Notes under the pieces: model-generated
Database searches by the model: none
Told to the model about the DNA's origin: nothing
The model's input: the letters and a program-made list of their open reading frames with translations, nothing else
In this document: positions 17,113 to 52,661 of the stretch, in pieces
How positions within the stretch are numbered: the first letter of the stretch is position 1
Layout of the letters: each line of letters starts with the position of its first letter
NCBI RefSeq assembly: GCF_900103285.1
Contig: NZ_FNGS01000001.1
Coordinates: forward strand, 551,515-615,514
Direction: 5' to 3'
Length of the DNA stretch: 64,000 bases
Origin: Siphonobacter aquaeclarae
GTDB taxonomy: Bacteria; Bacteroidota; Bacteroidia; Cytophagales; Spirosomataceae
Translations under genes and position numbers: made by a program

Positions 17113-17211
17113 GGAGTCTGTTTTCGGTTTTCTGTTTCCGGTTTTCAGTTGGGGATCCGACGAAGCCTGTGGAAACAGAAAACTGAAAACCCCTAAACTG
17201 AAAACCGTTTT
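17113..17211. repeat. palindromic GAAAACTGAAAACCG-type repeat, copy A
   Basis: The gap between the GSDH and oxidoreductase genes is filled by degenerate units related to CGGTTTTCAGTT and their complements. GTTTTCTGTTTCC is matched by GGAAACAGAAAAC further on, and CGGTTTTCAGTT by AACTGAAAACCG. The same units occur at 31846-31937 and 52504-52590, both inside cobalamin riboswitches. Confidence 0.75.
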
Positions 17212-17214
17212 TCT

Positions 17215-18408
17215 ATGTCTCAAAAAATCGCCATGCTCGGCTCCGGGTTCATCGCCCGGTTTTATGCCGACTCCATTCAGGGAATCCGCAGTCAGGACAA
17301 GATTGTCTCCGTATACTCCCGCCGGGAAGAAAGTGCCCGGAAATTTGCCGATGACTATGCTGTGGCTCACTCGACGACGTCTATGCTCGAAGCCATTCAG
17401 CATCCGGAGGCAGACGTAGTCGTCATCGCCCTGCCCAACAACCTCCACGAAGAGGCGGTACTCGCCGCGGCAGCCGCCGGCAAGGGGGTACTTTGCACAA
17501 AACCCCTCGGCCGCAACGCCGAAGAGGCCCTTCGTATGCTCCAAGCAGTGGAGGCGGCCGGCGTCTTTCACGGATACCTCGAAGACCTCGTTTACACGCC
17601 AAAATTCCTGAAATCACTTTCCAGCGTGCAGGAAGGCCACATCGGGCAGATTCTCTGGGCTCGCTCGCGCGAGACGCACCCCGGCCCGCACAGCGACTGG
17701 TTCTGGAACCAGGACGAGTCGGGCGGCGGCGCGATCCTTGATCTGGGCTGCCATTGCATCGAAATCACACGCAGTTATATCGGGAAAGACATCCGGCCGG
17801 TCGAAGTCATGTGCTGGGCCGATACGCAGGTAAAACCGATCACAGCCGAGGACCACGCCGTAGGCCTCGTGAGGTACGAAACCGGCGCGGTAGCGCAGTT
17901 TGAAGTGAGCTGGACGTTCCGCGGCGGCCTCGACCTCCGTGACGAAGTCATGGGCACCGAGGGTACCATCTGGGTCAATAACTTCCTCCGGACCGGTCTG
18001 GAAATGTTTGTCTCCGGAAAAGGCGGAAACTACGTCGCCGAAAAATCGGAAAGCAACAGCGGCTGGATCTTCCCCGTGGGCGACGAAGTACATGACCTCG
18101 GCTACAATACCATGTTTGCCGATATGTTTTTTTCGATGGAAACCGGTACCGAAGGTCGTGAGACGTTTTACGACGGCTATGTCGTAAACGCCATCATGGA
18201 CGCGGCGATGAAATCCGCCAAAACCAAGCTCTGGGAACCGATAGAGCTGCCGCTCTGGCGTGGGAAAGAAGGCGTCACAAAGATCTCTGCCCTGCAGGAA
18301 TACGACGAAGAACACTACCTCATCAAGCAGGAAACCATCCACGATGGTCGAACAAAGGTCATCGTCAAGGAAAAACAAAGCGGCAAAATCAGCGAGCGGG
18401 TACTATGA
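17215..18408 (+). CDS. Gfo/Idh/MocA family oxidoreductase (cytoplasmic)
   Basis: A 397-residue NAD(P)-dependent dehydrogenase with no signal peptide. The N-terminal Rossmann fold starts KIAMLGSGFIARFYADSI; the family lysine motif is CTKPLGRNAEEALRML. The C-terminal beta domain carries ILDLGCHCIEITRSYIGKD, with the conserved Asp and His of the active site. It probably oxidises or epimerises a sugar or cyclitol imported by the locus. It overlaps the next oxidoreductase by 4 bp. Confidence 0.88.
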   Translation: MSQKIAMLGSGFIARFYADSIQGIRSQDKIVSVYSRREESARKFADDYAVAHSTTSMLEAIQHPEADVVVIALPNNLHEEAVLAAAAAGKGVLCTKPLGRNAEEALRMLQAVEAAGVFHGYLEDLVYTPKFLKSLSSVQEGHIGQILWARSRETHPGPHSDWFWNQDESGGGAILDLGCHCIEITRSYIGKDIRPVEVMCWADTQVKPITAEDHAVGLVRYETGAVAQFEVSWTFRGGLDLRDEVMGTEGTIWVNNFLRTGLEMFVSGKGGNYVAEKSESNSGWIFPVGDEVHDLGYNTMFADMFFSMETGTEGRETFYDGYVVNAIMDAAMKSAKTKLWEPIELPLWRGKEGVTKISALQEYDEEHYLIKQETIHDGRTKVIVKEKQSGKISERVL

Positions 18409-19355
18409 ATCCACGGAGAACCTTTCTCAAAAATGTCTCCCTGGCTGGAATGAGTCTGGGCCTCGGGGCCTGGGCTTCTCCGCCGGAGACCCGGCGTATC
18501 GGCATTATCGGCCTGGATACGTCGCACAGCGAAGTCTTTACCCGTTTAATCCATGAATCATCCGGCGCATACCGCGTTGTGGCGGCCTATGCGCAGGGCA
18601 GTAAAGATATTCCGTCGGCGCTGCAATTACGCCCGGGCGTAACACAGGCGGTGCAGAAGATGGGCGTTGAGCTCGTCGGCTCCATCGCCGAACTGCTCGA
18701 CAAAGTAGATTGTGTATTACTGGAAACGAACGACGGTCGCCCGCACCTCGAACAGGTACTCCCGGTCCTGAAGGCCGGGAAACGCGTCTTCGTCGACAAA
18801 CCCCTCGCCGCCAGTCTTGCCGACGCCGAGCGGATTTTCCAGGCGGCGGAAGACGCCAAAACACCGCTTTTTACCACGTCGGCCCTCCGCTTTGACGCCA
18901 ACGTGCAAAAGGTCGCCAACGGATCGATCGGCGCCGTGACCGGCGCCGATGTCTACGCCCCCGCCACGCTCGATCCGCATCACCTGGACCTGGCCTGGTA
19001 TGCCATTCACGGGGTAGAGATGCTCTGCACGGTAATGGGTACGGGCTGCAGGCGTGTGTCGCGTGTGTACGAGGCGGGTACGGATCTCGTCACGGCCGTG
19101 TGGGAAGACGGGCGGATCGGTACCGTCCGCGGCATCCGGAAAGGAGCCACGAATATTGCCGGTACGGCTTTCGGCGAAAAAGGCATTGCACCGCTGGGGC
19201 CGTTTTCGTCTTATCAGCCGCTGATCGATCAGATTCTACGCTTTTTTGATACCGGCGTACCGCCTGTTACCCCGCAGCAAACCCTGGAAATTTTCCGTTT
19301 TCTGGACGCCGCCGACCGGAGTCGCCGGAAGAACGGAAAAACCATCGTTCTCTGA
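18405..19355 (+). CDS. Gfo/Idh/MocA-like oxidoreductase with Tat-type signal
   Basis: A 316-residue protein beginning NPRRTFLKNVSLAGMSLG, a twin-arginine export signal, then a Rossmann fold (RRIGIIGLDTSHSEVF) and the family motif VFVDKPLAASLADAERIF. It is shorter than the usual 350-400 residues, and the C-terminal domain is reduced. The glycine fingerprint is partly replaced (GIIGLDTSH), so cofactor binding may be altered. Coupling by 4-bp overlap to the cytoplasmic paralogue suggests the same pathway on opposite sides of the membrane. Confidence 0.82.
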   Translation: MNPRRTFLKNVSLAGMSLGLGAWASPPETRRIGIIGLDTSHSEVFTRLIHESSGAYRVVAAYAQGSKDIPSALQLRPGVTQAVQKMGVELVGSIAELLDKVDCVLLETNDGRPHLEQVLPVLKAGKRVFVDKPLAASLADAERIFQAAEDAKTPLFTTSALRFDANVQKVANGSIGAVTGADVYAPATLDPHHLDLAWYAIHGVEMLCTVMGTGCRRVSRVYEAGTDLVTAVWEDGRIGTVRGIRKGATNIAGTAFGEKGIAPLGPFSSYQPLIDQILRFFDTGVPPVTPQQTLEIFRFLDAADRSRRKNGKTIVL

Positions 19356-19370
19356 CACCGCACCACCAAC

Positions 19371-22778: not shown

Positions 22779-22823
22779 AGCAACAATTCCGGCCGCTGTT
22801 GAGTACTTTTCCGAAAAAAAAAC

Positions 22824-23138: not shown

Positions 23139-23281
23139 CCCGTTCGTGTGCGGGCTACCTGACAACGTGGATATAGATAGCGACTGAAACTCAGTCTGGA
23201 AGCAGATGAACGCAATTCATCCGCCTGGGTTTGGTATCTTTCCTGTTGTTGCGGTTCTTTTGGGTTTGATCCTTCATCCGT

Positions 23282-24113: not shown

Positions 24114-24116
24114 CCT

Positions 24117-25529: not shown

Positions 25530-25541
25530 GCGAAAGAAGGA

Positions 25542-28838: not shown

Positions 28839-28851
28839 GCCCGGCACAACG

Positions 28852-31065: not shown

Positions 31066-31664
31066 CAAAGAGAAGAAAAGGATTCAAACAAAGTCACCAG
31101 GCCCACCAGTATCGAAAACAGGCCGAGCCCGATACGGATGCCGTTGAGCGACGGCATGTGGGTCCATTTCCGGAAAGAAACGGCCAGAAAACATCCGTAG
31201 AGCGTCATCGCAAGCAAAATGGCGGCGCTCTGAAAGACAATTACCCAGACGGCCGTCGCCGTATCTTCTGCCGCCAGCGTCAGCGCGGCCGTGCAGGCGG
31301 CGCCTGTCCCGGCCAGCCCGTGGATCATGCCGACGCCGAACGAACGGCCCGCGAGGGGTTTTGCGGGTGTATTACGGCGGAGGATGGCATTCGCGCCGAG
31401 GGCGATCATCAGCGGCCCGACGACCCACTCCGCATACGCGCTGACATTTTCCGACAGCTGCGATTTCAGTAACAAAATCAGGCAGGCAAATACAATCAGC
31501 GTAAAGGCATGGCCCAGCGCCCACTGAGAAGACCGCCAGATGACTTTCCTTACCTGGCTTCGGTCTTTTTCGTCCGATAAAACGGAGACAGCCGCCAGGT
31601 GATCCGGCTCAAAAGAATGCTGGACGCCCAGCGCCAGCGAATCAATCAGTAAAGGGTAAAGCAT
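31065..31664 (-). CDS. NiCoT/UreH-type nickel/cobalt permease
   Basis: A 199-residue inner-membrane protein with about six helices. The N-terminal helix has ALGVQHSFEPDHLAAVSVLS; H16-x4-D21-H22 is the HX4DH signature of nickel/cobalt transporters. A second polar helix carries GMIHGLAGTGAACTAALTL. Regulation by a cobalamin riboswitch argues for cobalt as the physiological substrate. It is coupled with the TonB receptor downstream. It is short for classical NiCoT (8 helices), so UreH/HupE-like assignment is the alternative. Confidence 0.85.
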   Translation of the reverse strand: MLYPLLIDSLALGVQHSFEPDHLAAVSVLSDEKDRSQVRKVIWRSSQWALGHAFTLIVFACLILLLKSQLSENVSAYAEWVVGPLMIALGANAILRRNTPAKPLAGRSFGVGMIHGLAGTGAACTAALTLAAEDTATAVWVIVFQSAAILLAMTLYGCFLAVSFRKWTHMPSLNGIRIGLGLFSILVGLVTLFESFSSL

Positions 31665-31667
31665 ACT

Positions 31668-31689: not shown

Positions 31690-31771
31690 CAAAGGCAAGA
31701 CGGACACAGCCTGCAAAAGGCTCTGCAACCAGCTTCCCCACCTTTTTTCCCGAAGGCGATGAACGAATACC

Positions 31772-31998
31772 GGAAAGGCAGGTCTTCTGGCTTACCCCTC
31801 TCTTCACAGCCTTCCCGCGGGTGAGCGCAGTGGCGTCGGGGTGAAGAGTTTTCGGTTTGGGGTTTTCTGTTTTCAGTTGGCGGGACAACATTAACCGTAA
31901 ACTGGCAACAGAAAACCGAAAACTGAACAAGGTTTACAGCAGCGGGTACTGCTCCGGTTTTTCACCGGATTCCCTATTAAATCCTTTGGGAAAAGGAT
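31772..31998 (-). ncRNA. cobalamin riboswitch 1 (controls the NiCoT and TonB receptor genes)
   Basis: On the minus strand the class-I cobalamin aptamer is plain: TTAATAGGGAATCCGGTG, CCCGCTGCTGTAA, GCCACTG, CGGGAAGGC and the B12 box GCCAGAAGACCTGCC, in that order. Between CTGTAA and GCCACTG there is an unusually long insert built of GAAAACTG-type repeats (31846-31937). CTCTTCAC and GTGAAGAG form the stem flanking the GCCACTG segment. It should lower expression of the permease and receptor when adenosylcobalamin is plentiful. Confidence 0.95.
31846..31937. repeat. palindromic GAAAACTGAAAACCG-type repeat, copy B, inside riboswitch 1
   Basis: AGTTTTCGGTTT at the left is complemented by AAACCGAAAACT-like sequence at the right, with inner units GTTTTCTGTTTTCAGTT and GTAAACTGGCAACAG. 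The left arm matches the start of copy A and the complement of copy C. It lies wholly within the variable arm of the aptamer. Confidence 0.8.
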
Positions 31999-32084
31999 AC
32001 CGTTTCCGGCCGCGATATTACGCCAATTCGACCGGAATCCGGTATATTCGTCGGCTAAAACGTTCTTTCTTTATTTCTTCCAAC

Positions 32085-32276
32085 AGGAAAAGGTTCTGCT
32101 TAACAGCGGATTAATAGGGAATCGTGTGTGAATCACGAGCTGTCGTGCAACTGTAAGTAACCGGAGGACGGAAGCCATGCTTTCCCCTCACATCCGGATC
32201 GGCGTTATCTCCACTGTTCTTTCGGGAATGGGAAGGAGGATTCGGGTGGTACAAGTCAGGAGACCTGCCTTTTTCG
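32085..32276 (+). ncRNA. cobalamin riboswitch 2 (controls TonB receptor-cobB-cobN operon)
   Basis: The plus-strand aptamer has TTAATAGGGAATCGTGTGTG, GTCGTGCAACTGTAA, CCACTG, GGGAATGGGAAGG and the B12 box AGTCAGGAGACCTGCC. P1 can form between GGAAAAGG (32086-32093) and CCTTTTTC (32268-32275). The variable arm between CTGTAA and CCACTG is about 55 nt and does not contain the GAAAACTG repeat. It is divergent from riboswitch 1 with under 100 bp between them, so both leaders share one intergenic promoter region. Confidence 0.95.
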
Positions 32277-32282
32277 GTGCGG

Positions 32283-32383
32283 ACGATGCCTTCACGGGTG
32301 AGGCAAGTCAGGGTTGGCTTTCAGGATGTTCCGCTCCGGAACACCCCTGTTTCTCCTTTTCTTTCCCGCCGCTGCGGCATCGT
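32283..32383 (+). promoter_or_regulatory. candidate expression platform of riboswitch 2
   Basis: ACGATGCC (32283-32290) can pair with GGCATCGT (32376-32383), or its 3' half can join the local hairpin TGCCTTCAC/GTGAGGCA (32287-32305). Between them a stem with TGTTCC/GGAACA and CAGG/CCTG (32322-32349) is followed by a T-rich run, resembling a weak terminator. The alternatives are mutually exclusive. Confidence 0.45.
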
Positions 32384-38418: not shown

Positions 38419-38420
38419 CT

Positions 38421-41400: not shown

Positions 41401-42653
41401 CTCCCGGACCGAGCGGAGCGCCCACCCGCGGGATGGCTCACCTGCTGCCGACAGGCCGGAATTTTTACGCCGTAGACCCCCGGGCGCTGCCGTCCGCGGC
41501 GGCATGGGAAGTCGGTCGCCAACTCGCCGACGAAGTACTCCGGCGGCACCTCCGCGAAACCGGCGCCTATCCGGAACGCGTGGGCATCAGCATCTGGGGT
41601 ACCAGCGCGATGCGGACGCATGGCGACGACGTCGCGGAAATACTCGCGCTGCTCGGCGTAAGGCCGGTATGGCAGGCAGAAAGCCGCCGGCTCACCGGCG
41701 TGGAAGTCATCCCTCGGGAAGAACTGGGCCGGCCGAGAGTCGACGTTACGGTTCGCATCAGCGGGTTTTTCCGGGATGCTTTCCCGCACCTGATTCAGTT
41801 GATGGACGAGGCCTTCCGGGTAGTCATGCAGCTCGACGAGCCGGATAATTTCGTCCGGCAACATTACCTCGCTGACCTGTTGACATCGTCGGACGTACCC
41901 GTCGAAGAAGCCGAGGAAAAAGCTGCCTACCGTATTTTCGGCTCTGCGCCGGGAACCTACGGCGCGGGTATTCTGCCATTGATTCAGGAAAAAAACTGGA
42001 AAACAGAAGCCGATTTCACACAGGCATACGTCAACTGGGGCGGCTATGCCTATTCCGGTAACGCCCAGGGCGTAGATGCGCGACCGGAATTCCGGCAGCA
42101 ATTGGCCGGCATACAGGTAGCGGTGCATAACCAGGACAACCGGGAGCATGATATCTTCGACAGCGACGACTACCTCCAGTTTCACGGCGGAATGATCGCC
42201 AGTATCCGTAGCCTGACCGGGCAGCAGCCCAAACACTACTTTGGTGATTCCCAGAACCCGGCGCGGCCCGTGGTGAGGGACTTGAAAGAAGAAGCACTGC
42301 GGGTGTTCCGGTCGCGTGTGGTGAACCCCAAGTGGCTCGCCGGTATCCAAAAACACGGGTACAAAGGCGGATTGGAACTGACGGCTACAGTCGACTACCT
42401 CTTCGGCTACGATGCCACAGCCGGTATTCTGGAAGACTGGATGTACGAAAAAGTAGCCGAAACCTATGCGCTCGACCCGGACATGCAGCAGTTTTTGCAG
42501 GAAAACAATCCCTGGGCTCTGCAGGCCATCTCCGAGCGATTGCTGGAAGCCGCAGGCCGGGATCTCTGGAAAGAGCCGGACGCTGCTACCCTCGAAGCCC
42601 TGCAGCAACTGCAACTGAGTAACGAGGGAATGCTGGAGATACGGGGAGAATAA
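38421..42653 (+). CDS. cobN: cobaltochelatase CobN with N-terminal [2Fe-2S]-ferredoxin-like domain
   Basis: A 1410-residue protein, longer than ordinary CobN (about 1250). Residues 1-130 form a COG3411-like ferredoxin domain with C29, C33-C35, then [12 protein letters not shown] (C70, C74). The rest is CobN, the large porphyrin-binding subunit of the aerobic cobalt chelatase: [60 protein letters not shown] and the late [17 protein letters not shown]. It inserts cobalt into hydrogenobyrinate a,c-diamide using ATP, with a ChlI/ChlD-type partner, here probably the gene at 46697. No CobS/CobT pair is present. Confidence 0.93.
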
Positions 42654-42660
42654 AAGTCAG

Positions 42661-42677
42661 CGCGGGCTTCGCCCGCG
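42661..42677. terminator. GC hairpin between convergent cobN and ThuA genes
   Basis: CGCGGGC-TTC-GCCCGCG, a perfect 7-bp stem with a 3-nt loop, sits 7 bp after the cobN stop. The T-run is clear only on the minus strand a few bases later (ACTTTTA). It may end the ThuA transcript and slow read-through from cobN. Confidence 0.5.
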
Positions 42678-42821
42678 GTCTTGCTCTGGAATTTCCGAAA
42701 AACCGCGTTGAGTACCCGGCAACAGGTTTACATACTGCCGGCCGGAACCTTTTCCGACGGCGAGTTTGAACGACCGCAACAGTCACAAACCGATTCAGCA
42801 TGCGTCACAGACATGGCTGGA

Positions 42822-43565
42822 TCACGGCCGGAGTATCCAGCGCAAAGCGTTCGTCAGAAGTACTTTGTAAGAAGCGTTTTCAAACAGGTTCGGGTCATGC
42901 CCCATGAAGATATAGAGGTTTTTTCCCTTGATCTGCTCGTTGGTCCAGACGACAGGGTGGTCTCCCATTTTCCGGTCGGAAGCGGGCTGATACGTCGATT
43001 CGTCTACCGCAGCCAGTACCCGGACGTTTGGCCTCGGGCTTCTGTCGTAGGTGTACCATTCTTCTTTCACAACGCTGAACCGGGCAGGAACGCCTTTCAT
43101 AACCGGGTGCGTAGCGTCTTCCACGACGACTTCCGCCGCCACAAACGTCGGGATATACGATGTAAACCGGATACCGCCCATGAATTCCTGAAACCAGGGC
43201 CAGACAGTATGCCCGTTGAAATCGCCGAGCAGCGTCGCATGATGAACGCCGATCCAGCCGCCCCTGCCGCTTTCCATATAGTCCTTGAACGCCTGTTTCG
43301 CCGTTTCCGGCCATCCGTACGGCGGGTAGTTCAGCTGGAAGACGAGGGCATATTTCGCGAGGGACTCTTGGGTAAAGGAAGCCGTATTTTCCACATAATC
43401 AATGGAAAAGTGCTCCGTTGCCGCCAGGCGGTCGAGCCATATCCGCGCGGTATCAACATATGGCTGATGCTGTTCGCCGCGCTCTGCCAGAACGAGTATC
43501 CGGGGGTACTGGGCGAAGGCAGGCAGACCGATTGCCAGCAGGCATATCCAAAGCAAGTGTTTCAT
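42822..43565 (-). CDS. ThuA-like domain protein, secreted
   Basis: A 247-residue protein with signal peptide (KHLLWICLLAIGLPAFAQ). The ThuA fold (glutamine-amidotransferase-like) shows in LVFQLNYPPYGWPETAKQAF, GGWIGVHHATLLGDFNGHT, EVVVEDATHPVMKGVPARF, EEWYTYDRSP, DHPVVWTNEQIKGKNLYIFM and GHDPN. Function is unclear; ThuA proteins occur with trehalose/sugar oxidation genes and Gfo/Idh enzymes, and one is divergent here. It is not obviously part of cobalamin metabolism. A near-consensus promoter lies directly upstream, implying an almost leaderless mRNA. Confidence 0.85.
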   Translation of the reverse strand: MKHLLWICLLAIGLPAFAQYPRILVLAERGEQHQPYVDTARIWLDRLAATEHFSIDYVENTASFTQESLAKYALVFQLNYPPYGWPETAKQAFKDYMESGRGGWIGVHHATLLGDFNGHTVWPWFQEFMGGIRFTSYIPTFVAAEVVVEDATHPVMKGVPARFSVVKEEWYTYDRSPRPNVRVLAAVDESTYQPASDRKMGDHPVVWTNEQIKGKNLYIFMGHDPNLFENASYKVLLTNALRWILRP

Positions 43566-43572
43566 GGGTTGC

Positions 43573-43603
43573 CAAAGTTAGGGACGAAGCCCGTATCTTC
43601 AAC
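43573..43603 (-). promoter_or_regulatory. Bacteroidota-type promoter of the ThuA gene
   Basis: On the minus strand GTTG (43603-43600), a 19-nt spacer, then TAACTTTG (43580-43573) match the TTTG-N19-TAnnTTTG consensus in all but one base. The start codon is only 8 bp downstream of the -7 box, so the transcript should have almost no leader. Confidence 0.7.
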
Positions 43604-43628
43604 CGCATTCTCCGTTCTCTAAATCCTG

Positions 43629-44714
43629 ATGAAAAAAACACTGATTTTCGGCCTTTTACTGCTGGCGTCTTACCTGGCTGACGCGCAAAAACCGCTTCGT
43701 CTGGCAGTAGCCGGCGTTTCGCACGGACACGTTCCCTGGATTCTCAACCGGAAAGACAAAAAGGATATCGAGCTGGTCGGTGTCGCCGAGCCTGATAAGG
43801 AACTTTCTGCCCGGTATGCAGCCCGTTACAAGCTCGACCCGAAGCTGTTTCATACCGACCTCGGAAGGATGCTGGACGAAGTAAAGCCGGAAGCTGTCGT
43901 CGCCTTCGGCTCAATCTACCAGCACCTGGCCGTGGTAGAGGCCTGCGCTCCGCGGGGCATCCACGTCATGGTCGAAAAACCGCTCTCCTACCGCCTTGAT
44001 CATGCCAAACGTATGGTGGAACTGGCCGAGAAAAACCATATCTATTTGCTGACGAACTACGAAACTTCCTGGTATCCGTCGATTGAAAAGGCCTTTCAAC
44101 TCGTAGCAGATAGCAATTTTGTCGGAAAACTGCGAAAGGTAGTCGTACATACCGGACACGAAGGGCCGAAAGAAATCGGCGTCGGCAAAGAGTTTTTCGA
44201 CTGGCTGACCGACCCCGTCCAGAACGGCGGCGGCGCCCTGATCGATTTCGGCTGCTACGGCGCCAATCTGATGACGTATTTCACGAAAGGCGAAAAGCCG
44301 CTTTCGGTGACGGCGATTACCCGTCAGTTCAAGCCGGAAATATATCCGAAGGTAGACGACGAGGCGACGATCATCGTCGAGTATCCGTCCTCTCAATGCA
44401 TTATCCAGGCGTCGTGGAACTGGCCTTTCGGGCGAAAAGACATGGAAGTCTACGGCGACAAAGGCTATATCATCACCGATAACAACACCGATTACCGTCT
44501 CCGCAACCGGACCCACCCGGAGCGCAGGACGAAGGTTTCAAAAGAGGCGCTCGGGGTGTATGACGACCCGTTTGCCTACTTCCATGACGTCATCCGCGGA
44601 AAAATCGAACTGCGGCCCTATGACTTATATTCGCCCATTAATAACCTGACCGCCGTTCAGATTCTGGATGCCGCCCGCCAGTCGGCCAAAACCGGAAAAA
44701 CCGTGACGCTGTAA
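43629..44714 (+). CDS. Gfo/Idh/MocA family oxidoreductase, exported
   Basis: A 361-residue protein with signal peptide (KKTLIFGLLLLASYLADAQ). The Rossmann part begins LRLAVAGVSHGHVPWIL, and the family motif is HVMVEKPLSYRLDHAKRM. The C-terminal domain has GGGALIDFGCYGANLMTYF, where the usual catalytic His of the family is replaced by a Gly/Ala context. It is divergent from the ThuA gene, a frequent pairing in Bacteroidota sugar metabolism. It heads a run of four plus-strand genes leading into the chelatase subunit. Confidence 0.85.
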   Translation: MKKTLIFGLLLLASYLADAQKPLRLAVAGVSHGHVPWILNRKDKKDIELVGVAEPDKELSARYAARYKLDPKLFHTDLGRMLDEVKPEAVVAFGSIYQHLAVVEACAPRGIHVMVEKPLSYRLDHAKRMVELAEKNHIYLLTNYETSWYPSIEKAFQLVADSNFVGKLRKVVVHTGHEGPKEIGVGKEFFDWLTDPVQNGGGALIDFGCYGANLMTYFTKGEKPLSVTAITRQFKPEIYPKVDDEATIIVEYPSSQCIIQASWNWPFGRKDMEVYGDKGYIITDNNTDYRLRNRTHPERRTKVSKEALGVYDDPFAYFHDVIRGKIELRPYDLYSPINNLTAVQILDAARQSAKTGKTVTL

Positions 44715-44718
44715 TCGC

Positions 44719-46053
44719 ATGAGTCAAACTTCTTCTTCCCAATGGCTGGGCCATCCCCGCGGACTTTTCATCCTTTTTCTGACCGAACTCTGGGAACGTT
44801 TCAGTTTCTACGGCATGCGGGCCATTCTGGTGCTGTACCTGACCGCGCCCATGACCGGCCTGAACCCCGGTCTGGGCTGGAGCAATGCCGAAGCCCTCAC
44901 GTTTTACGGTTGGTATGGTTTCAGCGTGTACATGGCCAGTCTTCCGGGGGGGTACCTCGCTGACAAATGGCTGGGGCAGAAAAAGACGGTCATGATCGGG
45001 GCCATTCTCCTGACGGTCGGCCACGGTATTCTGGCCATTCAGGCGATGTGGGCGTTTTACCTGGGGATATTCTTCATCGTATCAGGCGTAGGCCTGCTCA
45101 AGCCGAATATTTCGACGATGGTGGGCGGGTTATATGGCCTGCACGATACCCGCCGCGACAAAGGATTTACAATCTTCTACATCGGCATCAACATCGGCGC
45201 GGCAATTGCGCCACTGCTGGTAGGCTGGGTAGCCTATCGATACGGCTGGCACTATGGCTTCGGCCTGGCGGGTGTCGGGATGGCGCTGGGTTTTCTCGGG
45301 TACCTGCAAGGCCAGAAATACCTGCAATCTGTCGGTAACTTCCTCGGCACCAGCGAAGACGCTTCCGACCGGGAAAAATTACACAAGCCGCTGACGCCCG
45401 TCGAAAAAGACCGGGTACTCGTGCTCGTTCTTTCCTTCCTGATTGTCATTATTTTCTGGGGAGCATACGAGCAGGCCGGCGGTCTGATGAACCTGTATGC
45501 CGAGCAGAAAACCGACCGGCATTTACTTGGTATGGAGATACCGGCGTCCTGGTTTCAGTCGCTGCCAGGCATTTTCGTAATTTCACTGGGAACGATCGTC
45601 GCCGCCTGGTGGAGCCGCCGCGCCAAAAAAGGAAAGGAATCGTCTTCCCTCGCTAAACTGGCGATCGGGACGATGATTACCGGCTCCGGATTCTTCTTTA
45701 TGACAGCAGCGTCGCTCCAATATGCGGCAGACGGCAAAGCGGCTATGTACTGGCTGGTACTGGCTTACCTCTTCCACGTGATCGGGGAGCTGTCGTCTTC
45801 GCCGGTGTCGCTGTCGTTTATCACGAAACTCGCGCCGGCCAAGTACGCCTCCATGATGATGGGCTTGTATTGGGCGGCTACCGGAATGGGCGAAAAACTC
45901 GCCGGAACGCTGGGCGCGTGGTCGCAAACCTGGGGAGAATTCGAAACCTTCACGGGCATCGCGGTTTTCTGCGTCCTTTTCGGAGGGTTGATCCTCCTGC
46001 TGCTCAAACCGCTGAAACGGCTTACGCACGGAGCCGACGATGATTACGAATAG
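44719..46053 (+). CDS. POT/PTR-family proton-coupled peptide transporter
   Basis: A 444-residue inner-membrane protein with twelve or more helices. The N-terminal TELWERFSFYGMRAILVLYL is the ExxER proton-coupling signature, followed by GGYLADKWLGQKKTVMIGA and FIVSGVGLLKPNISTMVGGL with FTIFYIGINIGAAIAPLLVG. These are diagnostic of POT di/tripeptide transporters. It begins 4 bp after the oxidoreductase gene and ends 2 bp before the methyltransferase. Its substrate may be peptides or related conjugates; a link to corrinoid metabolism is only positional. Confidence 0.9.
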   Translation: MSQTSSSQWLGHPRGLFILFLTELWERFSFYGMRAILVLYLTAPMTGLNPGLGWSNAEALTFYGWYGFSVYMASLPGGYLADKWLGQKKTVMIGAILLTVGHGILAIQAMWAFYLGIFFIVSGVGLLKPNISTMVGGLYGLHDTRRDKGFTIFYIGINIGAAIAPLLVGWVAYRYGWHYGFGLAGVGMALGFLGYLQGQKYLQSVGNFLGTSEDASDREKLHKPLTPVEKDRVLVLVLSFLIVIIFWGAYEQAGGLMNLYAEQKTDRHLLGMEIPASWFQSLPGIFVISLGTIVAAWWSRRAKKGKESSSLAKLAIGTMITGSGFFFMTAASLQYAADGKAAMYWLVLAYLFHVIGELSSSPVSLSFITKLAPAKYASMMMGLYWAATGMGEKLAGTLGAWSQTWGEFETFTGIAVFCVLFGGLILLLLKPLKRLTHGADDDYE

Positions 46054-46055
46054 CC

Positions 46056-46691
46056 ATGGAAACGGAACAATTGAAAGAACTCGCCCGGCAGCTGAGCTGC
46101 CCCGAAGGTGAGAACGGCCTGAAAACGGCCGAGCAGATGAACTTCTCCAACGGTGGCATGACCCGCTTCACCATCCGGACGCTTAACCCGCAACCGGGCG
46201 AAACGGTACTGGAAATCGGCCCGGGAAACGGCGAACATGTCCATGAACTGAGCGACGTGCAGTACCAGGGGGCGGATATTTCAGGACTGATGGTCGCCGA
46301 GGCTCGCCGCATCAACCACGCGCGGGTAGCAGCCGGAACGGCTGCCTTCGATCTGGTTCCGGCCGATCGCCTGCCTTATCCGGACCATTCGTTCGACCGC
46401 ATTTTCACGGTTAATACCCTGTATTTCTGGCAACAACCGGAAGCCTACGCGAATGAGATTTACCGGGTTTTACGGCCGGGAGGCACCTTTTGCCTCGCGT
46501 TTGCCCTGCGCTCGTTCATGGAAAAACTACCCTTCGTCACCTACGGCTTCCGCCTCTATGACGAGCAGGCGGCACTCGCCGTGCTCGGGTCTTTTTCCCG
46601 GAAAGAAGTAGTCTTTCAAACCGAAGAAATCGTCGGCAATACCGGGCAGTCGGTCATCCGTGATTACGCGGTCATCGTCGCTCATAAATAA
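46056..46691 (+). CDS. class I SAM-dependent methyltransferase
   Basis: A 211-residue cytoplasmic enzyme. SAM-binding motif I is TVLEIGPGNGEHVHEL, motif II/III region DLVPADRLPYPDHSFDRIFT, and the motif IV-V region NEIYRVLRPGGTFCLAFALR, as in the Methyltransf_11 family. The substrate is not indicated. It does not resemble the tetrapyrrole (precorrin) methylases, which have a different fold. It lies 2 bp after the POT gene and 5 bp before the chelatase subunit. Confidence 0.85.
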   Translation: METEQLKELARQLSCPEGENGLKTAEQMNFSNGGMTRFTIRTLNPQPGETVLEIGPGNGEHVHELSDVQYQGADISGLMVAEARRINHARVAAGTAAFDLVPADRLPYPDHSFDRIFTVNTLYFWQQPEAYANEIYRVLRPGGTFCLAFALRSFMEKLPFVTYGFRLYDEQAALAVLGSFSRKEVVFQTEEIVGNTGQSVIRDYAVIVAHK

Positions 46692-46696
46692 CGATC

Positions 46697-48487
46697 ATGA
46701 TTTATCCATTTGCGGCGTTGGTCGGACAGGAACGGCTTGTCCGGGCGCTTCTTCTCTGTGCTGTTCATCCGGGTATCGGCGGGGTGCTGATCCAGGGAGA
46801 CAAGGGAACGGCCAAAAGTACCGCTGCCCGCGGCCTGGCTGAAATCCTGCCTCCGGTACGCCGGGCGGTCGGCTCTCCGCTGAATTTGTCGCCGGAGGAA
46901 ACGGATGGTACTTCCGGAGCGGAACTCGTTCCGGCTCCTTTTGTTACCCTTCCCCTCGGCGCTTCGGAAGACCGGGTCATCGGGCAGCTGGACCTCGAAA
47001 CCGTACTCACCGAACGCCGCAGGACATTGCAACCGGGCCTGCTGGCGGCGGCGCATCAGGGGATTCTATACATTGATGAAGTAAACCTGCTGCCGGATCA
47101 CCTGGTGGACGTCCTGCTGGACGTCGCCGCTTCCGGTGTGAATACCATCCAGCGCGACGGACTATCCGTCAGCCACCCCTCCCGGTTTTTTCTGATCGGA
47201 ACAATGAACCCTGAGGAAGGATCGCTCCGGCCTCAGTTTCTGGACCGTTTTGGCTTGATGGTCCACGTGCATGCACCGGATGATCCGGTTGTCCGCGCCG
47301 AAGTCATCCGCCGTCGTATTGCCTTTGAGCGGGAACCGGCGGTATTCCGTCAGGCCTGGCAGGAAACCGAAGATATGCTCAAAACCCGCATACTCGCGGC
47401 ACGCGCCCTGCTCCGGCATGTCCGTCTGTCCGACGAGCTGCTGCTGCACATCAGTCAGCTTTGCCGCGACGCCGGTGTGCAAAGCCTCCGGGCGGATATC
47501 GTTTTATACAAGACGGCCCTCGCCTGGGCAGCGCTCGAGCAACGCAACGAAGTAACGGAATCGGATATACAACAAGCGTCTGAACTCGTCCTGGCGCACC
47601 GGCGGAAAAACCGGCAACCAGACCGGCCTTCGGGCGGGTCACCGGAACCGCCGCAGATCGATCCTCCTGCCGGCGGTTCGGAGAAGCAAGAGGAAGTTTT
47701 CGGCATTCTCCCGACCGGAGCAGCACCGGTGATTGAAGTACGGGATACCGGGCTGGCCGGGCTGGCGGGTCGTCGCAGCCAAACCCCTGACCGCTCGCGG
47801 GGGCCCGTTGTCCGGACGACGCCGTCGCCCTTCCCCACAGAATTAGCCCTGGAAGCCAGCATCCGCCAGGCGCTGCTGCGTGATCCGGATAACGCCGGCC
47901 TCACCCGGCAGGACCTTCAACAGGCCGAACGGAGCGGAAAAACCGGTCATTTTCTGTTGTTTGTCGTGGACGCCTCCGGCTCCATGGCTGCCAACCGGCG
48001 CATGGAAGCGGTGAAAGGTACGATCCTGTCTCTCCTGACCGACGCCTACCAGAAACGGGATACGGTAGGACTGATTACCTTCCGTGGCGCCGAAGCCCAG
48101 GTAGTACTGGCGCCCACGCAGCGTACCGAACACGCGGAAGAAGCGCTGCGGTCGCTCCCAACGGGCGGGCGTACGCCGCTCGCGCATGCGCTGCTCCTCG
48201 CAGAAGAACTCGTACGGTTCGGGCCGGAAAACCCGCTGCTGGTCATCGTCAGTGACGGTAAGGCCAATGTACCCCTGCCGGGCGGCGGTGATCCCATCCG
48301 TCAGGCACTCACCATCGCCGGACGCCTCGCGGGTACGCCCGCCATCGTTCTGAATACGGAAATCGGGTTTCTTCCTTCCGGTCAGGCCGCCCGCCTGGCT
48401 GAGGCACTGCAGGCACCCTGTTTATCTCCGGAAGCTTTTTCCTCCGAAAATATCCTTCGTCTTCTTACCTCCTACCGAAAGAAATGA
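46697..48487 (+). CDS. ChlI/ChlD-type chelatase subunit (AAA+ plus VWA), probable CobN partner
   Basis: A 596-residue protein joining a ChlI/BchI-like AAA+ module (Walker A GDKGTAKST at 34-42, Walker B ILYIDEVNLLP, FLIGTMNPEEGSLRPQFLDR) to a proline-rich linker (about 305-365) and a VWA domain with the MIDAS motif DASGS at 425-429. CobN-only clusters without CobST are thought to use such a protein as the motor. No close ChlI paralogue is in the window. Its stop overlaps the start of cobQ. The alternative, a magnesium chelatase, is unlikely as no chlorophyll genes are seen. Confidence 0.88.
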   Translation: MIYPFAALVGQERLVRALLLCAVHPGIGGVLIQGDKGTAKSTAARGLAEILPPVRRAVGSPLNLSPEETDGTSGAELVPAPFVTLPLGASEDRVIGQLDLETVLTERRRTLQPGLLAAAHQGILYIDEVNLLPDHLVDVLLDVAASGVNTIQRDGLSVSHPSRFFLIGTMNPEEGSLRPQFLDRFGLMVHVHAPDDPVVRAEVIRRRIAFEREPAVFRQAWQETEDMLKTRILAARALLRHVRLSDELLLHISQLCRDAGVQSLRADIVLYKTALAWAALEQRNEVTESDIQQASELVLAHRRKNRQPDRPSGGSPEPPQIDPPAGGSEKQEEVFGILPTGAAPVIEVRDTGLAGLAGRRSQTPDRSRGPVVRTTPSPFPTELALEASIRQALLRDPDNAGLTRQDLQQAERSGKTGHFLLFVVDASGSMAANRRMEAVKGTILSLLTDAYQKRDTVGLITFRGAEAQVVLAPTQRTEHAEEALRSLPTGGRTPLAHALLLAEELVRFGPENPLLVIVSDGKANVPLPGGGDPIRQALTIAGRLAGTPAIVLNTEIGFLPSGQAARLAEALQAPCLSPEAFSSENILRLLTSYRKK

Positions 48488-49932
48488 TGAAACCGATGAT
48501 GTTGGTCGGGACGGCGTCGGACGTGGGCAAAAGTGTCATTACAGCCGCCTTTTGCCGTATTTTCCGGCAAGACGGCTATCATCCTGCGCCGTTCAAGGCC
48601 CAGAATATGTCGCTCAACAGCTACGCCACGCCCGAGGGCCTTGAGATCGGGCGGGCACAGGCCGTACAGGCTGAGGCGGCTGGTATTCCCTGCCATACCG
48701 ACATGAACCCTGTTTTGCTGAAGCCGACAAGCGACAAGGCCTCCCAAATCGTACTCAACGGCAAACCGGTCGGTACGCAATCGGCGTGGGAGTATTTCAT
48801 GGCGGACGATCGCCAGGCGCTATTCACCGCCGTCACCGAAGCGTATGACCGGCTTGCGGCCCGCTATTCGCCCATCGTGATGGAAGGCGCGGGAAGTATT
48901 TCCGAGCTCAATCTCCGTCACCGCGACATTACCAATCTCCGCATGGCTATCCATGCCGGCGCAGCTACATACCTCATCGGCGATATCGACCGGGGCGGGC
49001 TGTTTGGCAGTGTCTATGGTACCATTGCGCTGCTGACACCTGAGGAAAGAACCTGTATCCAGGGTATTATTGTCAATAAATTCCGCGGAGATGCCCGGTT
49101 GTTCGAAGACGGCAAACGCATGCTTGCGGAGCTGACCGGCGTCCCGGTAGTCGGCGTACTGCCCTACTACCGCGATATTTACATCGAGGAAGAAGACTCC
49201 GTAGCACTCGACTGGAAGCGGCGCTCAGCCCTGGACGGCAAAGTGAATGTCGCTGTCGTACTTCTTCACCGCATGTCCAATTTTACCGACTTCAACCGAC
49301 TGGAACGGGACCCCCGGGTAAATCTCTACTATGCCGCGACGCCCCGGGAGCTCGAAGCCGCCGATGTGGTGATTCTTCCGGGAAGTAAAAACACAGTCGA
49401 AGACCTGATTTCGCTTCGCCAGCGGGGCATGGCAGCCGCCATTCTCTCCGCCCGGAAAAACGGAAAAACCGTGATCGGAATCTGCGGCGGCTATCAGATG
49501 ATGGGAGAATCGGTCGAAGATCCGGAAGGGGTGGAAAGTACCGTTCCATTCGTTCCCGGCCTGGGTCTTCTGCCCGTGCGGACGGTACTGACTCCGCATA
49601 AAACGACGAATCAGCGAACCTTTACCTTTCAGGGAGCAACGTGCTCGGGATATGAAATTCACATGGGTGTGACCAGCGGCGGCGGCCAACCGGTAGCAAT
49701 ACTGGCGGACGGTACTCCGGACGGATGCCGCGCAGACAATACCTGCTGGGGTACCTATCTTCATGGTATCCTCGACAACGATGCTGTCGTCAATGCAGTC
49801 CTCGAACCGCATACGGCTGCACGGGCGGCCCCTTTTTCCTATCCTGACTGGAAAGAAGAACAATACGACAAACTGGCCGACTGGCTCCGCAGCCACATCG
49901 ACCTCGACTATATCTATGGAACGCTGAGATAG
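48484..49932 (+). CDS. cobQ: cobyric acid synthase
   Basis: A 482-residue enzyme with P-loop GTASDVGKS (9-17), then FKAQNMSLNSYATPEGLEIG and NPVLLKPTSDKASQIVLNG, signatures of CobQ/CbiP. The C-terminal glutamine amidotransferase has VIGICGGYQMMGES (nucleophile Cys) and YEIHMGVT. It amidates the b, d, e and g side chains of (adenosyl)cobyrinate a,c-diamide. The start overlaps the chelatase stop by 4 bp. An ATG one codon later is also possible. Confidence 0.95.
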   Translation: MMKPMMLVGTASDVGKSVITAAFCRIFRQDGYHPAPFKAQNMSLNSYATPEGLEIGRAQAVQAEAAGIPCHTDMNPVLLKPTSDKASQIVLNGKPVGTQSAWEYFMADDRQALFTAVTEAYDRLAARYSPIVMEGAGSISELNLRHRDITNLRMAIHAGAATYLIGDIDRGGLFGSVYGTIALLTPEERTCIQGIIVNKFRGDARLFEDGKRMLAELTGVPVVGVLPYYRDIYIEEEDSVALDWKRRSALDGKVNVAVVLLHRMSNFTDFNRLERDPRVNLYYAATPRELEAADVVILPGSKNTVEDLISLRQRGMAAAILSARKNGKTVIGICGGYQMMGESVEDPEGVESTVPFVPGLGLLPVRTVLTPHKTTNQRTFTFQGATCSGYEIHMGVTSGGGQPVAILADGTPDGCRADNTCWGTYLHGILDNDAVVNAVLEPHTAARAAPFSYPDWKEEQYDKLADWLRSHIDLDYIYGTLR

Positions 49933-49948
49933 TGTTCTGATTCTGACT

Positions 49949-50956
49949 ATGTTACACGGACACGGAGACGACGGATACCGCTATCCGCAACCCATACGGG
50001 CCGATTTCAGCACCAACGTCTGGTATGGCGGCGAGCCGGAAGGCCTGAAAGAACACCTCTTCGCCAACTGGGCGCGGGTAAACCGGTATCCGGAGGTAAC
50101 CGCCGAGCGGCTCGCCGATCAGATCGCTGCTCAAAAGGGCTTGCGGGCCGGGCAGGTACTCGTTCACAACGGTACCGCGGAGAGCATTTACCTGCTCGCG
50201 CAGGCCTTCGCAGGCGTTGTTACGACGATTGTCTATCCGTCATTCTCTGAATACGAAGACGCCTGCCGGCTGCACGGTCATACCCTCCGGTTTGTCGCCT
50301 GGGAATACCTGGATCGGCTCGAAGCCGGCAGTACCCTGCTTTTCATTTGCCACCCGAATAATCCAACAGGGCAGACCTTTCCTTCGCTCGTATCCCTTCT
50401 TTCCCGGTTTCCGGAGACGATTTTTGTGGTGGATGAAGCTTTTATCGACTTCACGGATCAGGTATCTTCCCTGATTCCGCTGATCGGCCGGTATCCTAAC
50501 CTGCTCATTCTCCGATCATTGACCAAAACCTATGCCATTCCGGGATTACGCCTGGGATATGTCGCCGGAAGTGAGGCAGTACTCGACCGGGTCCGGGCCG
50601 TGCGGCCTCCGTGGACGGTCAACGCCCTCGCGCTGGAGACCGGTTATTACCTGCTTGATAAGCCGGCTCCCTTTGAACTGACTTCCTATCTCCGGGAAAG
50701 GGATGATTTCCGGCAACAACTGCAAAGGATATCCTCGCTTGTCGTCCACCCGACGGATACCCATTTTTTCCTTTGTGAAACAACAAAAGCTACGGCGGCT
50801 GACCTCAAGTCCTGGCTCGTGGAGCGCCACGGCCTGCTGATCCGCGACGCAGGAAATTTCCGGGGGTTGTCGCCGCGGCATTTCCGGCTCGCCACACTCG
50901 ATCCGACCCGAAACCAATGGCTTCTTAACGCGCTGACTGAATGGGAGTTATCCTGA
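49949..50956 (+). CDS. cobD: L-threonine-phosphate decarboxylase-type PLP enzyme
   Basis: A 335-residue class I/II aminotransferase-fold enzyme. HGHGDDGYRYPQPIRADFST at the start is typical of CobD/CobC. FICHPNNPTGQTFPS, VVDEAFIDF and SLTKTYAIPGLRLGY follow, with K193 the PLP-binding lysine. It should make (R)-1-aminopropan-2-yl phosphate from threonine phosphate for the nucleotide loop. It sits between cobQ and cbiB, the next step's synthase, which it overlaps by 16 bp. The Pseudomonas naming convention calls this cobC. Confidence 0.9.
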   Translation: MLHGHGDDGYRYPQPIRADFSTNVWYGGEPEGLKEHLFANWARVNRYPEVTAERLADQIAAQKGLRAGQVLVHNGTAESIYLLAQAFAGVVTTIVYPSFSEYEDACRLHGHTLRFVAWEYLDRLEAGSTLLFICHPNNPTGQTFPSLVSLLSRFPETIFVVDEAFIDFTDQVSSLIPLIGRYPNLLILRSLTKTYAIPGLRLGYVAGSEAVLDRVRAVRPPWTVNALALETGYYLLDKPAPFELTSYLRERDDFRQQLQRISSLVVHPTDTHFFLCETTKATAADLKSWLVERHGLLIRDAGNFRGLSPRHFRLATLDPTRNQWLLNALTEWELS

Positions 50957-51870: not shown

Positions 51871-52418
51871 CCGGAGGCCCCGGAGCGGGCAAAACAACAT
51901 TATTGGAAACGCTGGCCGGGTTGGGTTATGCCTGTTCGGAGGAAGTATCGCGGCGGCTGATCCGGGAAGAAGTAGCAGTGAAATCCGACTGTTTACCCTG
52001 GAAAAACCTGGCCTGCTTCGCCGGAAAATGCCTGGGTGAAATGGAAAAAGACCATCATCGGGCAACTGGCCTTACTTTTTTTGACCGTGGCATACCGGAT
52101 ATCGTCGCATACCTCGTGGCCGGCGGGCAGCCGGTAGCTGCCGCCTGCCGCGAGGCCCTGGCGCGGTGCGAATACCACCCGGAGGTGTGGATAGCACCAC
52201 CCTGGGAAGCTATCTATCAGCAAGATGACGAACGCTGGCAGACGTTTCCGGAAGCAGTACGTTTGTATGAACACATTTCAGAAACATATCTGTCACTCGG
52301 ATTCCGGCTCCGGGAATTACCGCTTTCATCGCCGGAAGAACGGGCCGGAATAATCCTTCAGGCGCTCGGTATTACCGCAATCCCCGCCGCCGGATCGCGC
52401 AATCGCCCCGATTCTTGA
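51849..52418 (+). CDS. AAA_28-type P-loop ATPase/kinase-like protein (paralogue 2)
   Basis: A 189-residue protein. The ATG at 51849 gives [15 protein letters not shown] at the N-terminus, nearly identical to the protein at 37546. Shared blocks: Walker [10 protein letters not shown] (9-17), [24 protein letters not shown] (DRGIPD at 79-84), YHPEVWIAPPWEAIYQQDDE. It lacks the extra C-terminal domain of paralogue 1. The start is 22 bp inside cbiB, so translation is coupled to the aminopropanol-attachment step. Function unknown; a small-molecule kinase for the nucleotide-loop pathway (for example making threonine phosphate) is a testable guess. Confidence 0.78.
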   Translation: MVTRIILTGGPGAGKTTLLETLAGLGYACSEEVSRRLIREEVAVKSDCLPWKNLACFAGKCLGEMEKDHHRATGLTFFDRGIPDIVAYLVAGGQPVAAACREALARCEYHPEVWIAPPWEAIYQQDDERWQTFPEAVRLYEHISETYLSLGFRLRELPLSSPEERAGIILQALGITAIPAAGSRNRPDS

Positions 52419-52419
52419 T

Positions 52420-52427
52420 TAGCTTTG
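52420..52427 (+). promoter_or_regulatory. -7 element of riboswitch 3 transcript
   Basis: TAGCTTTG matches TAnnTTTG exactly, one base after the stop of the P-loop ATPase and 4 nt before the aptamer begins. No good TTTG is seen 19-20 nt upstream, so the -33 element is weak or absent. Confidence 0.5.
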
Positions 52428-52430
52428 CAA

Positions 52431-52661
52431 CCAGCCAGGGTCACATTTTGTGTGAAAACGGGAATGCCGGTGGGAATCCGGAACAGTCTCCGCTGCTGTG
52501 AGAACCCGGTTTTCAGTTTACCGTTGACGGTTTACGGTGCGCACCGTTTTCCAAACTGAAAACGAAAAACTGAAAACCGAAAACTCCTCACCACTCGCCA
52601 CTGCGTCTCCACGCGGGAAGGCGGTGAGGAGGGAGCAAAGTCAGAAGACCTGCCCCGGCTG
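52431..52661 (+). ncRNA. cobalamin riboswitch 3 (controls the corrinoid ABC transporter operon)
   Basis: Aptamer landmarks in order: GGTGGGAATCCGGAACAGTC, CCGCTGCTGTGAGAA, GCCACTG, CGGGAAGGC, and the B12 box AGTCAGAAGACCTGCC. P1 pairs AGCCAGGG with CCCCGGCT. CTCCTCACC and GGTGAGGAG flank the GCCACTG segment just as in riboswitch 1. The variable arm carries copy C of the GAAAACTG repeat (52504-52590). Only about 40 nt separate it from the ATG of the binding-protein gene, favouring translational control. Confidence 0.95.
52504..52590. repeat. palindromic GAAAACTGAAAACCG-type repeat, copy C, inside riboswitch 3
   Basis: CCGGTTTTCAGTTTACCG on the left and AACTGAAAACCGAAAACT on the right, with GGTGCGCACC at the centre. 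Read on the minus strand it starts like copies A and B (GAGTTTTCGG) and has GTAAACCGTCAACGG where copy B has GTAAACTGGCAACAG. Confidence 0.8.

What the first reader, a model, noticed from the sequence alone, without database searches (positions are those of the whole stretch)
17113..52590. A palindromic repeat family has invaded the same arm of two cobalamin riboswitches
Copies at 17113-17211, 31846-31937 and 52504-52590 are built of the same degenerate units (CGGTTTTCAGTT, GAAAACTGAAAACCG). Copies B and C sit between the CTGTAA and GCCACTG landmarks of riboswitches 1 and 3, directly next to matching stems CTCTTCAC and CTCCTCAC. Copy A is in an ordinary intergenic gap, so the element is not simply a riboswitch part. 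Riboswitch 2 lacks it. The repeats are seen; that they are mobile, and that the aptamer tolerates them as an extended stem, is inference. A mobile palindrome lodging in the peripheral arm of an RNA sensor would be a notable route of riboswitch evolution.
Basis: partly seen in the sequence, partly recalled or inferred. Interest (0 to 1): 0.7.

Follow-up and report, generated by a model that had tools for sequence, protein, structure and literature searches.

The report
Repeat hairpins lodged in B12 riboswitches
Short repeated DNA hairpins that are scattered through a bacterial genome also sit in a side arm of some of its vitamin-B12-sensing RNA switches, and relatives carry other repeats there or none, so the outer parts of an RNA sensor can be exchanged while its core sequence stays.

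Summary
Confirmed and extended. The genome belongs with Siphonobacter. Its three window cobalamin riboswitches are real (RF00174). Riboswitches 1 and 3 carry, in the same place, a hairpin of degenerate 7-nt units (GTTNNNN...NNNNAAC); copy A is the same element between two genes. Of 46 genome sites examined, nearly all outside riboswitches lie in gaps without a divergent promoter region, usually a few nt after a stop codon. In six Siphonobacter genomes 23 of 31 cobalamin riboswitches carry such a hairpin (21 by script), in two unit classes; all 31 keep the B12 box; 13 TPP riboswitches carry none. Two sister species (flanks ~95% alike) share all 17 compared sites, but at 6 of 17, one in a riboswitch, the whole hairpin is exchanged for another class. 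Dyadobacter orthologues lack this arm; 21 of 28 scored carry instead an 8-nt palindromic repeat in another arm, 7 are empty. So peripheral arms of this riboswitch are repeatedly occupied by lineage-specific repeat hairpins. Not shown: transposition (no shared loops; the one Y1 transposase gene found has no repeats nearby; other transposases were not searched) or that the switches work. Precedents: heptad hairpins in the Nostoc trnL intron; a pneumococcal BOX element between two T-boxes.

The parts
17113..17211 (.). Copy A: heptad hairpin in the gap between a GSDH/PKD/CBM6 gene (stop at 17112) and a GFO/IDH/MocA gene (start 17215); arms about 17120-17150 and 17174-17207
31760..32019 (-). Cobalamin riboswitch 1 (upstream of a HupE/UreJ-like gene, 31065-31664 -)
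   Evidence: RF00174 85.1 bits
31846..31937 (-). Copy B: class I heptad hairpin forming an extra arm of riboswitch 1
31841..31848 (-). Helix strand CTCTTCAC (minus strand) next to copy B, pairing with GTGAAGAG (plus-strand 31800-31807)
   Evidence: read; fold
32074..32286 (+). Cobalamin riboswitch 2 (upstream of a TonB-receptor gene, 32429-34780 +), without the repeat
   Evidence: RF00174 92.1 bits
52421..52671 (+). Cobalamin riboswitch 3 (upstream of a periplasmic-binding-protein gene, 52702-53856 +)
   Evidence: RF00174 69 bits
52504..52590 (+). Copy C: class I heptad hairpin forming an extra arm of riboswitch 3
52584..52591 (+). Helix strand CTCCTCAC next to copy C, pairing with GTGAGGAG at 52624-52631
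   Evidence: read; fold

Best explanation
The element belongs to a class of short-period palindromic repeats (7-nt units in Siphonobacter, 8-nt in Dyadobacter) that form long hairpins. In these genomes they mostly sit a few nt after stop codons, in gaps without a divergent promoter region. Cobalamin riboswitches are the exception: a 5' leader that accepts them, because certain peripheral arms can be replaced by any self-pairing hairpin without touching the ligand-binding core. Once a site holds such a hairpin it stays a site while the hairpin's own sequence turns over, at times by exchange of the whole hairpin for another unit class. Shown by comparison: the same repeats at stop codons and in riboswitch arms; the same arm in many riboswitches; orthologues without it; class exchange between near-identical flanks; retained core motifs; a parallel case in Dyadobacter. 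Inferred: that the RNA folds so in the cell, that the switch still works, and that exchange comes from unit slippage with template switching or from very short recombination tracts and not from transposition. A role of the stop-adjacent hairpins in mRNA end protection or in uncoupling neighbouring genes is inference, untested.
For: Genome-wide repeat with zero reversed controls in G000. 46 sites: 36 co-directional, 7 convergent, 2 divergent (one is riboswitch 1), 1 unassigned, 0 in genes. Stop codon within 15 nt at 28 of 35 co-directional non-riboswitch sites, 17.1 expected. 23 of 31 genus riboswitches filled by eye, 21 by script; B12 box in 31 of 31. Six of 17 sites exchanged between G001 and G004, one in a riboswitch with core identity 0.99 and arm 0.62. 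No heptad hairpin in the 76 non-Siphonobacter of 80 HupE loci. Dyadobacter octads: 21 of 28 filled, 7 empty, at least 6 changes on the tree; insert in a different hairpin loop; 4 of 7 Dyadobacter genomes have the strict octad hairpin pattern. 0 of 13 TPP riboswitches filled.
Against: No experiment. Filled riboswitches of G000 score lower with Rfam (85.1, 69 bits) than its empty ones (115.2, 92.1, 81.4), as insertions cost score. Three of 7 Dyadobacter genomes with octad-like arms have no strict octad hit. Own-arm pairing exceeds cross pairing only slightly. The 60-260 nt gap control shows some low-identity gaps without a detected hairpin too (4 of 101 co-directional). Gene calls and orthology groups are my own simple ones. 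The site list was capped, so 46 is not all sites.
Confidence: 0.7

Rival explanations
1. Non-autonomous mobile elements (MITE- or REPIN-like) that transpose into riboswitch arms and gaps through a transposase acting in trans.
For: Dispersed copies; patchy filled and empty orthologues in Dyadobacter and the empty G000 members of groups B and C.
Against: Loops and flanks of 23 G000 elements all differ by eye, best matches 72-85% through shared units; 0 of 17 empty sites between G001 and G004; the single PF01797 gene found has no repeat within its 3.3-kb locus. Other transposase families and target duplications were not searched.
Confidence: 0.15
2. The hairpin is a selected functional extension of the aptamer (for folding speed, stability or expression-platform timing) and the repeats were recruited because they give a strong hairpin.
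For: Very frequent in orthology groups B to F (23 of 25 members) while ordinary gaps are filled far less often (13 of 152 gaps of 60-260 nt in G001); the hairpin is kept though its sequence is exchanged; Dyadobacter does the same in another arm.
Against: Group A has 0 of 6, G000 has two empty orthologues, 7 of 28 Dyadobacter are empty, and the two genera use different arms.
Confidence: 0.2
3. The hairpins are intrinsic transcription terminators that happen to lie in the leaders.
For: Strong hairpins near stop codons; copy A is followed by TTTTT; TTTT follows in 7 of 56 flanks against 4.9% of random 12-mers.
Against: 49 of 56 flanks lack TTTT; 36 of 46 sites are between co-directional genes; the terminator scan does not report copy A.
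Confidence: 0.05

Closest known systems
Heptanucleotide P6b hairpin of the Nostoc trnL (tRNA-Leu UAA) group I intron (PMC4476775; abstract, sections 3 and 18, and passages seen)
   Same: Degenerate 7-nt units build a hairpin in a variable peripheral arm of a structured RNA; two unit classes; one class repeatedly replaces the other at the same place.
   Different: Other RNA (self-splicing intron), other phylum, other units (TDNGATT, NNTGAGT); here also at dozens of stop-adjacent sites, two genera, periods 7 and 8, two different arms.
Pneumococcal BOX element between two T-box riboswitches upstream of the trp operon (PMC3049150; passages seen)
   Same: An interspersed hairpin repeat in a riboswitch leader, transcribed with it.
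   Different: Lies between two T-boxes and not inside an aptamer arm; BOX is a modular MITE-like element without 7-nt units.
TAACTGA heptamer repeats of Beggiatoaceae, cyanobacteria and some Bacteroidetes (PMC4679880; abstract, section 12 and passages seen)
   Same: Intergenic repeats with a 7-nt unit of related sequence.
   Different: Direct repeats, one fixed unit, mostly just upstream of start codons; not palindromic; no riboswitch (that word is absent from its main text).
REP/RAYT elements, GTAG- or CGTC-tagged palindromes (PMC3733652; passages seen)
   Same: Small extragenic palindromes in many copies.
   Different: Conserved sequence with a tag and a tyrosine transposase; here degenerate units, unlike loops, and no repeat near the one Y1_Tnp gene found.
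STRR heptamers inside cyanobacterial RNase P RNA (recalled, no paper seen)
   Same: Short tandem heptamers inside a structured RNA.
   Different: Other RNA and phylum; recalled only.

Membership tests
Cobalamin riboswitch (RF00174) | Match above Rfam's gathering score | tested here: met
   85.1, 92.1 and 69 bits against 31.5
Cobalamin riboswitch (RF00174) | B12 box near the 3' end | tested here: met
   31 of 31 riboswitches of G000-G005
Cobalamin riboswitch (RF00174) | Binds cobalamin and controls expression | not testable with these tools
   needs an assay
REP/REPIN mobilised by RAYT | RAYT gene flanked by the repeats | tested here: not met
   one PF01797 match in G000; no heptad hairpin and no class I unit in its locus L151
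REP/REPIN mobilised by RAYT | GTAG or CGTC tag at one end | not tested
   no systematic count; no common tag stood out in the flanks printed
MITE | Copies alike over their full length with shared termini | tested here: not met
   23 elements, best 15 matches 72-85% and through shared units, loops unlike by eye
MITE | Target-site duplication | not tested
   no systematic test; none obvious in the L234/L236 pair
Heptanucleotide hairpin arms of structured RNAs (Nostoc trnL P6b type) | Period-7 units forming a hairpin arm | tested here: met
   lag 7/14/21 identity 0.69/0.70/0.66; folds
Heptanucleotide hairpin arms of structured RNAs (Nostoc trnL P6b type) | Unit classes replace each other at one site | tested here: met
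   6 of 17 sites, one in a riboswitch
Heptanucleotide hairpin arms of structured RNAs (Nostoc trnL P6b type) | Lies in the trnL intron with units TDNGATT or NNTGAGT | tested here: not met
   cobalamin riboswitch and other units: works like it, is not a member
Intrinsic terminator | T run after the hairpin | tested here: not met
   TTTT in 7 of 56 flanks

The most novel reading that the evidence does not exclude
A genome-wide process rewrites hairpins in place: at fixed sites (just after stop codons and in certain riboswitch arms) a whole hairpin is exchanged for one of another short-unit class, without transposition and without disturbing flanks that are about 95% alike. It has acted on two different arms of the same riboswitch family in two genera, with units of 7 and 8 nt, making the periphery of a riboswitch an interchangeable, evolving module.
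Probability: 0.35. Interest if true: 0.8.

Novelty: new variant of a known kind. Interest (0 to 1): 0.62.

Why it matters
It offers natural empty, filled and re-filled versions of one riboswitch, so that one can test directly how free the periphery of an RNA sensor is to change and whether repeat hairpins alter its switching. It also poses a tractable question of mechanism: what exchanges a hairpin in place at a fixed site? The Nostoc intron raised that question for one RNA; here there are many sites, several species and whole genomes.

Tried and rejected
Considered and rejected: (1) aptamer part only: the units recur at dozens of other sites. (2) RAYT-mobilised REP: one Y1_Tnp gene without nearby repeats; other transposases not searched. 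(3) Intrinsic terminator. (4) Spread into other structured RNAs: Rfam on 20 G000 loci with class I units (59 kb) gave one tRNA, on 7 G001 stretches (140 kb) nothing; none of 13 TPP riboswitches (11 over Rfam's cut-off, 2 just under) holds a heptad hairpin in the aptamer, though several of their 3-kb loci hold one elsewhere.

Literature: listings showed no description of these repeats or of interspersed repeats inside cobalamin riboswitch arms. The library lacks most subscription journals and only the top rows were listed, so this is weak evidence of absence.

Led nowhere or redone: detector too strict; one sequence; one row in a wrong frame, redone. The detector misses degenerate hairpins: it reports no hairpin in 4 counterpart stretches that by eye do carry heptads; at least three of the four lowest co-directional gaps counted as 'without hairpin' hold heptad-like fragments by eye. 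Rows dropped or scored by judgement: L260 left out, L248 and L261 counted as octad leniently; the two riboswitch sites left out; 35 of the 80 loci given to; one of 18 octad loci (L344) is itself a riboswitch arm. The unit-class test used 39 of 46 sites.
Full report
WHERE IT IS. The window is G000:C14:551515-615514 of a 6.19 Mb genome. G000 itself is unnamed. Three genomes that the tool calls the same genus, G002, G003 and G004, have contigs of exactly the lengths of Siphonobacter records (336101, 334657, 342356 bases), so the genus is taken to be Siphonobacter. The window holds cobalamin genes between riboswitches 2 and 3 (CobN, CbiA/CobB-like, CobQ-like), and HupE/UreJ-like, TonB-receptor, periplasmic-binding-protein and FecCD genes beside the riboswitches.

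The three copies are where stated and three RF00174 riboswitches are confirmed. Folded alone, each copy beats all 200 shuffles. In the minimum-energy fold of each whole riboswitch the insert is a separate long hairpin next to the helix CTCTTCAC/GTGAAGAG or CTCCTCAC/GTGAGGAG; the program ignores tertiary contacts and need not give every consensus pair. Letter identity within the arms of 39 G000 elements is 0.69, 0.70 and 0.66 at lags 7, 14 and 21 and at most 0.45 at the other lags up to 24. The commonest units are GTTTTCA (84), GTTTTCG (52) and GTTTAGG (27). I call GTTTTCN-like units class I and GTTTAGN/GTTTTGA-like units class II.

A GENOME-WIDE REPEAT. AAACTGAAAACCG occurs 78 times in G000 (reversed control 0), 8, 11, 3, 10 and 10 times in G001-G005, and 0 to 6 times in 19 other genomes of the family. 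The general hairpin pattern GTTTNNNGTTT N5-35 AAACNNNAAAC gives 107 hits per strand in G000 (overlapping hits counted apart) and 28 to 64 in the five congeners, control 0 (1 in G003). In the family sample 92 of 150 genomes have a hit; several other genera reach 10 to 36, many do not exceed their controls. I examined 46 distinct G000 sites: those in 340 kb of contig C14, those around the first class I hits, and those in the capped list, so not all sites. Of these 36 lie between co-directional genes, 7 convergent, 2 divergent (one is riboswitch 1), 1 unassigned, 0 in genes. Without the two riboswitches 1 of 43 assigned sites is divergent against 25 of 129 background gaps (Fisher p 0.006). At 28 of 35 co-directional sites the hairpin begins within 15 nt of the upstream stop codon (17.1 expected by uniform placement, 0 of 100,000 simulations reaching 28), against 11 of 35 within 15 nt of the start codon; median distances 5 and 27 nt. 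Genes were called by a simple codon-usage script.

RIBOSWITCHES OF THE GENUS. The five RF00174 matches of G000 and 26 of the congeners were read. By eye 23 of 31 carry a heptad hairpin at the same place (sequences); the script counts 21, missing G003_4 and G004_6. By my orthology groups: A 0 of 6, B 5 of 6, C 5 of 6, D 5 of 5, E 6 of 6, F 2 of 2; G000 is the empty member of B and C. All 31 keep the B12 box and three other landmarks. Mean core identity in groups A-E is 0.78-0.92, arm identity 0.54-0.75, with approximate arm borders. Of 13 TPP riboswitches in the same genomes (11 over the cut-off) none has a heptad hairpin in the aptamer. Against a wholly free insertion: the filled riboswitches of G000 score lower (85.1, 69 bits) than its empty ones (115.2, 92.1, 81.4), as any insertion does in such a model.

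TURNOVER IN PLACE. G001 and G004 have flanks about 95% alike. Over about 560 kb of collinear sequence each, 17 distinct sites with a detected hairpin in either species were compared; all have a hairpin-like counterpart and none is empty, though for 4 the script reports no hairpin and I rely on reading. Eleven are alike or nearly so (one with a 45-nt length difference, one with units changed around the same loop). Six are wholly exchanged for another class between unchanged flanks: G001 C5:46701 (riboswitch group E; core identity 0.99, arm 0.62) and C1:545368, 593928, 3144553, 3169536 and 3218764. Control: among 152 gaps of 60-260 nt, identity is under 0.7 in 4 of 13 with a hairpin, 4 of 101 other co-directional gaps and 10 of 139 of all others (Fisher p 0.006 and 0.02). 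A third unit class (GTTGATG) and octad-like gaps also occur in G001.

A SECOND GENUS, ANOTHER ARM, ANOTHER PERIOD. Eighty loci were found with a HupE alignment. The heptad detector finds hairpins in the four Siphonobacter loci and in none of the other 76. In Dyadobacter the orthologous leaders have a short linker at the Siphonobacter site. Most of them carry instead a palindrome of 8-nt units (GAATGANT; identity 0.78, 0.76 and 0.68 at lags 8, 16 and 24 in eight arms, with a half-period at 4) in the terminal loop of the CCACTG...GGGAAGG hairpin: for L234 Rfam shows 94 nt there where the model has 4. D. jiangsuensis (L236) has GGGA-TGT-TCCC where D. fermentans (L234) has the repeat, the rest being very similar. 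Of 28 Dyadobacter scored, 21 are filled and 7 empty, at least 6 changes on a HupE tree; direction is not told, several forks are open, and two rows were scored leniently. The strict octad hairpin pattern has 7, 6, 23 and 10 hits per strand (overlaps apart, riboswitch arms included) in four of seven Dyadobacter genomes, none in the other three, none in G000 and G001, and no control hit in the nine. Of 18 octad loci looked at one is a riboswitch arm; of the other 17, 16 are not divergent, and 15 of these 16 lie within 20 nt of a stop codon (counted by eye; only L344 was checked against a riboswitch). G011 and G015 have the same loop expanded by other sequence.

MECHANISM. Shown: hairpins of short units occupy certain kinds of places; peripheral arms of cobalamin riboswitches are among them; the hairpin can be exchanged while the site stays. 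In 23 G000 elements the loops and flanks differ by eye and the 15 best mutual matches are 72-85%. The one PF01797 gene found has no repeat in its locus. I therefore favour local processes (unit slippage plus template switching, or very short recombination tracts) over transposition. Evidence for one arm being copied from the other is weak: own-arm scores exceed cross scores slightly (class I 19.4 against 18.0, p 0.004; class II 20.1 against 17.1, p 0.001; the own partner is the best one in only 5 of 30 and 3 of 9). A role in mRNA end protection or uncoupling of genes is inference. Termination is unlikely: TTTT follows in 7 of 56 flanks, somewhat above the 4.9% of random 12-mers.

COMPARISON. 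The nearest case is the P6b arm of the Nostoc trnL intron, two classes of 7-nt units that replace one another (PMC4476775; abstract, sections 3 and 18, passages). The pneumococcal BOX between two T-boxes (PMC3049150, passages) is a repeat next to, not inside, an aptamer. TAACTGA heptamers (PMC4679880; abstract, section 12, passages) are direct repeats upstream of start codons; that paper reports an earlier proposal that 7 nt may be the length in contact with DNA polymerase. REP elements: PMC3733652, passages. STRR in RNase P RNA is recalled. So the kind is known in other structured RNAs; its occurrence in riboswitch arms, in two genera with two periods and two arms, with exchange both in riboswitches and in ordinary gaps, was not met in the listings named in Tried and rejected.

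Noticed in passing
L257 (leader upstream of HupE, Dyadobacter soli) and L223 1386-1658 minus (Dyadobacter sp. CY312): The octad arms of two different riboswitches in two species share about 28 nt (CGCACCGGCGACCCGGTC and neighbours) nested in the repeat: perhaps a further element inside the octad hairpin.
   Followed up: no
L303, L305, L311 (G000 C7:225466, C7:633580, C12:66825): Long pure tandem runs of one heptad on one side only (GTTTTCG, GTTTAGG or GTTTTCA, about 8 to 11 units), with the opposite arm short: slippage-like expansions.
   Followed up: no
L093, L094, L095 (G005 contigs C128, C197, C30): Three of four cobalamin riboswitches of G005 lie within about 500 nt of a contig end, on their upstream side, which suggests an assembly break there.
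   Followed up: no
G001 C1:592539-592603 and C1:3177132-3177224: Siphonobacter gaps with Dyadobacter-type octad units (GAATGA/TCATTC), so both unit types occur in one genome.
   Followed up: no
L333 and L334 (G011, G015): Cobalamin riboswitches of two other genera with the CCACTG hairpin loop expanded by other, partly self-complementary sequence.
   Followed up: partly
window 36122-50956: Cobalamin gene cluster (CobN, CbiA/CobB-like, CobQ-like, Mg-chelatase-like, aminotransferase) with a GFO/IDH/MocA oxidoreductase and a POT-family transporter gene inside it.
   Followed up: partly
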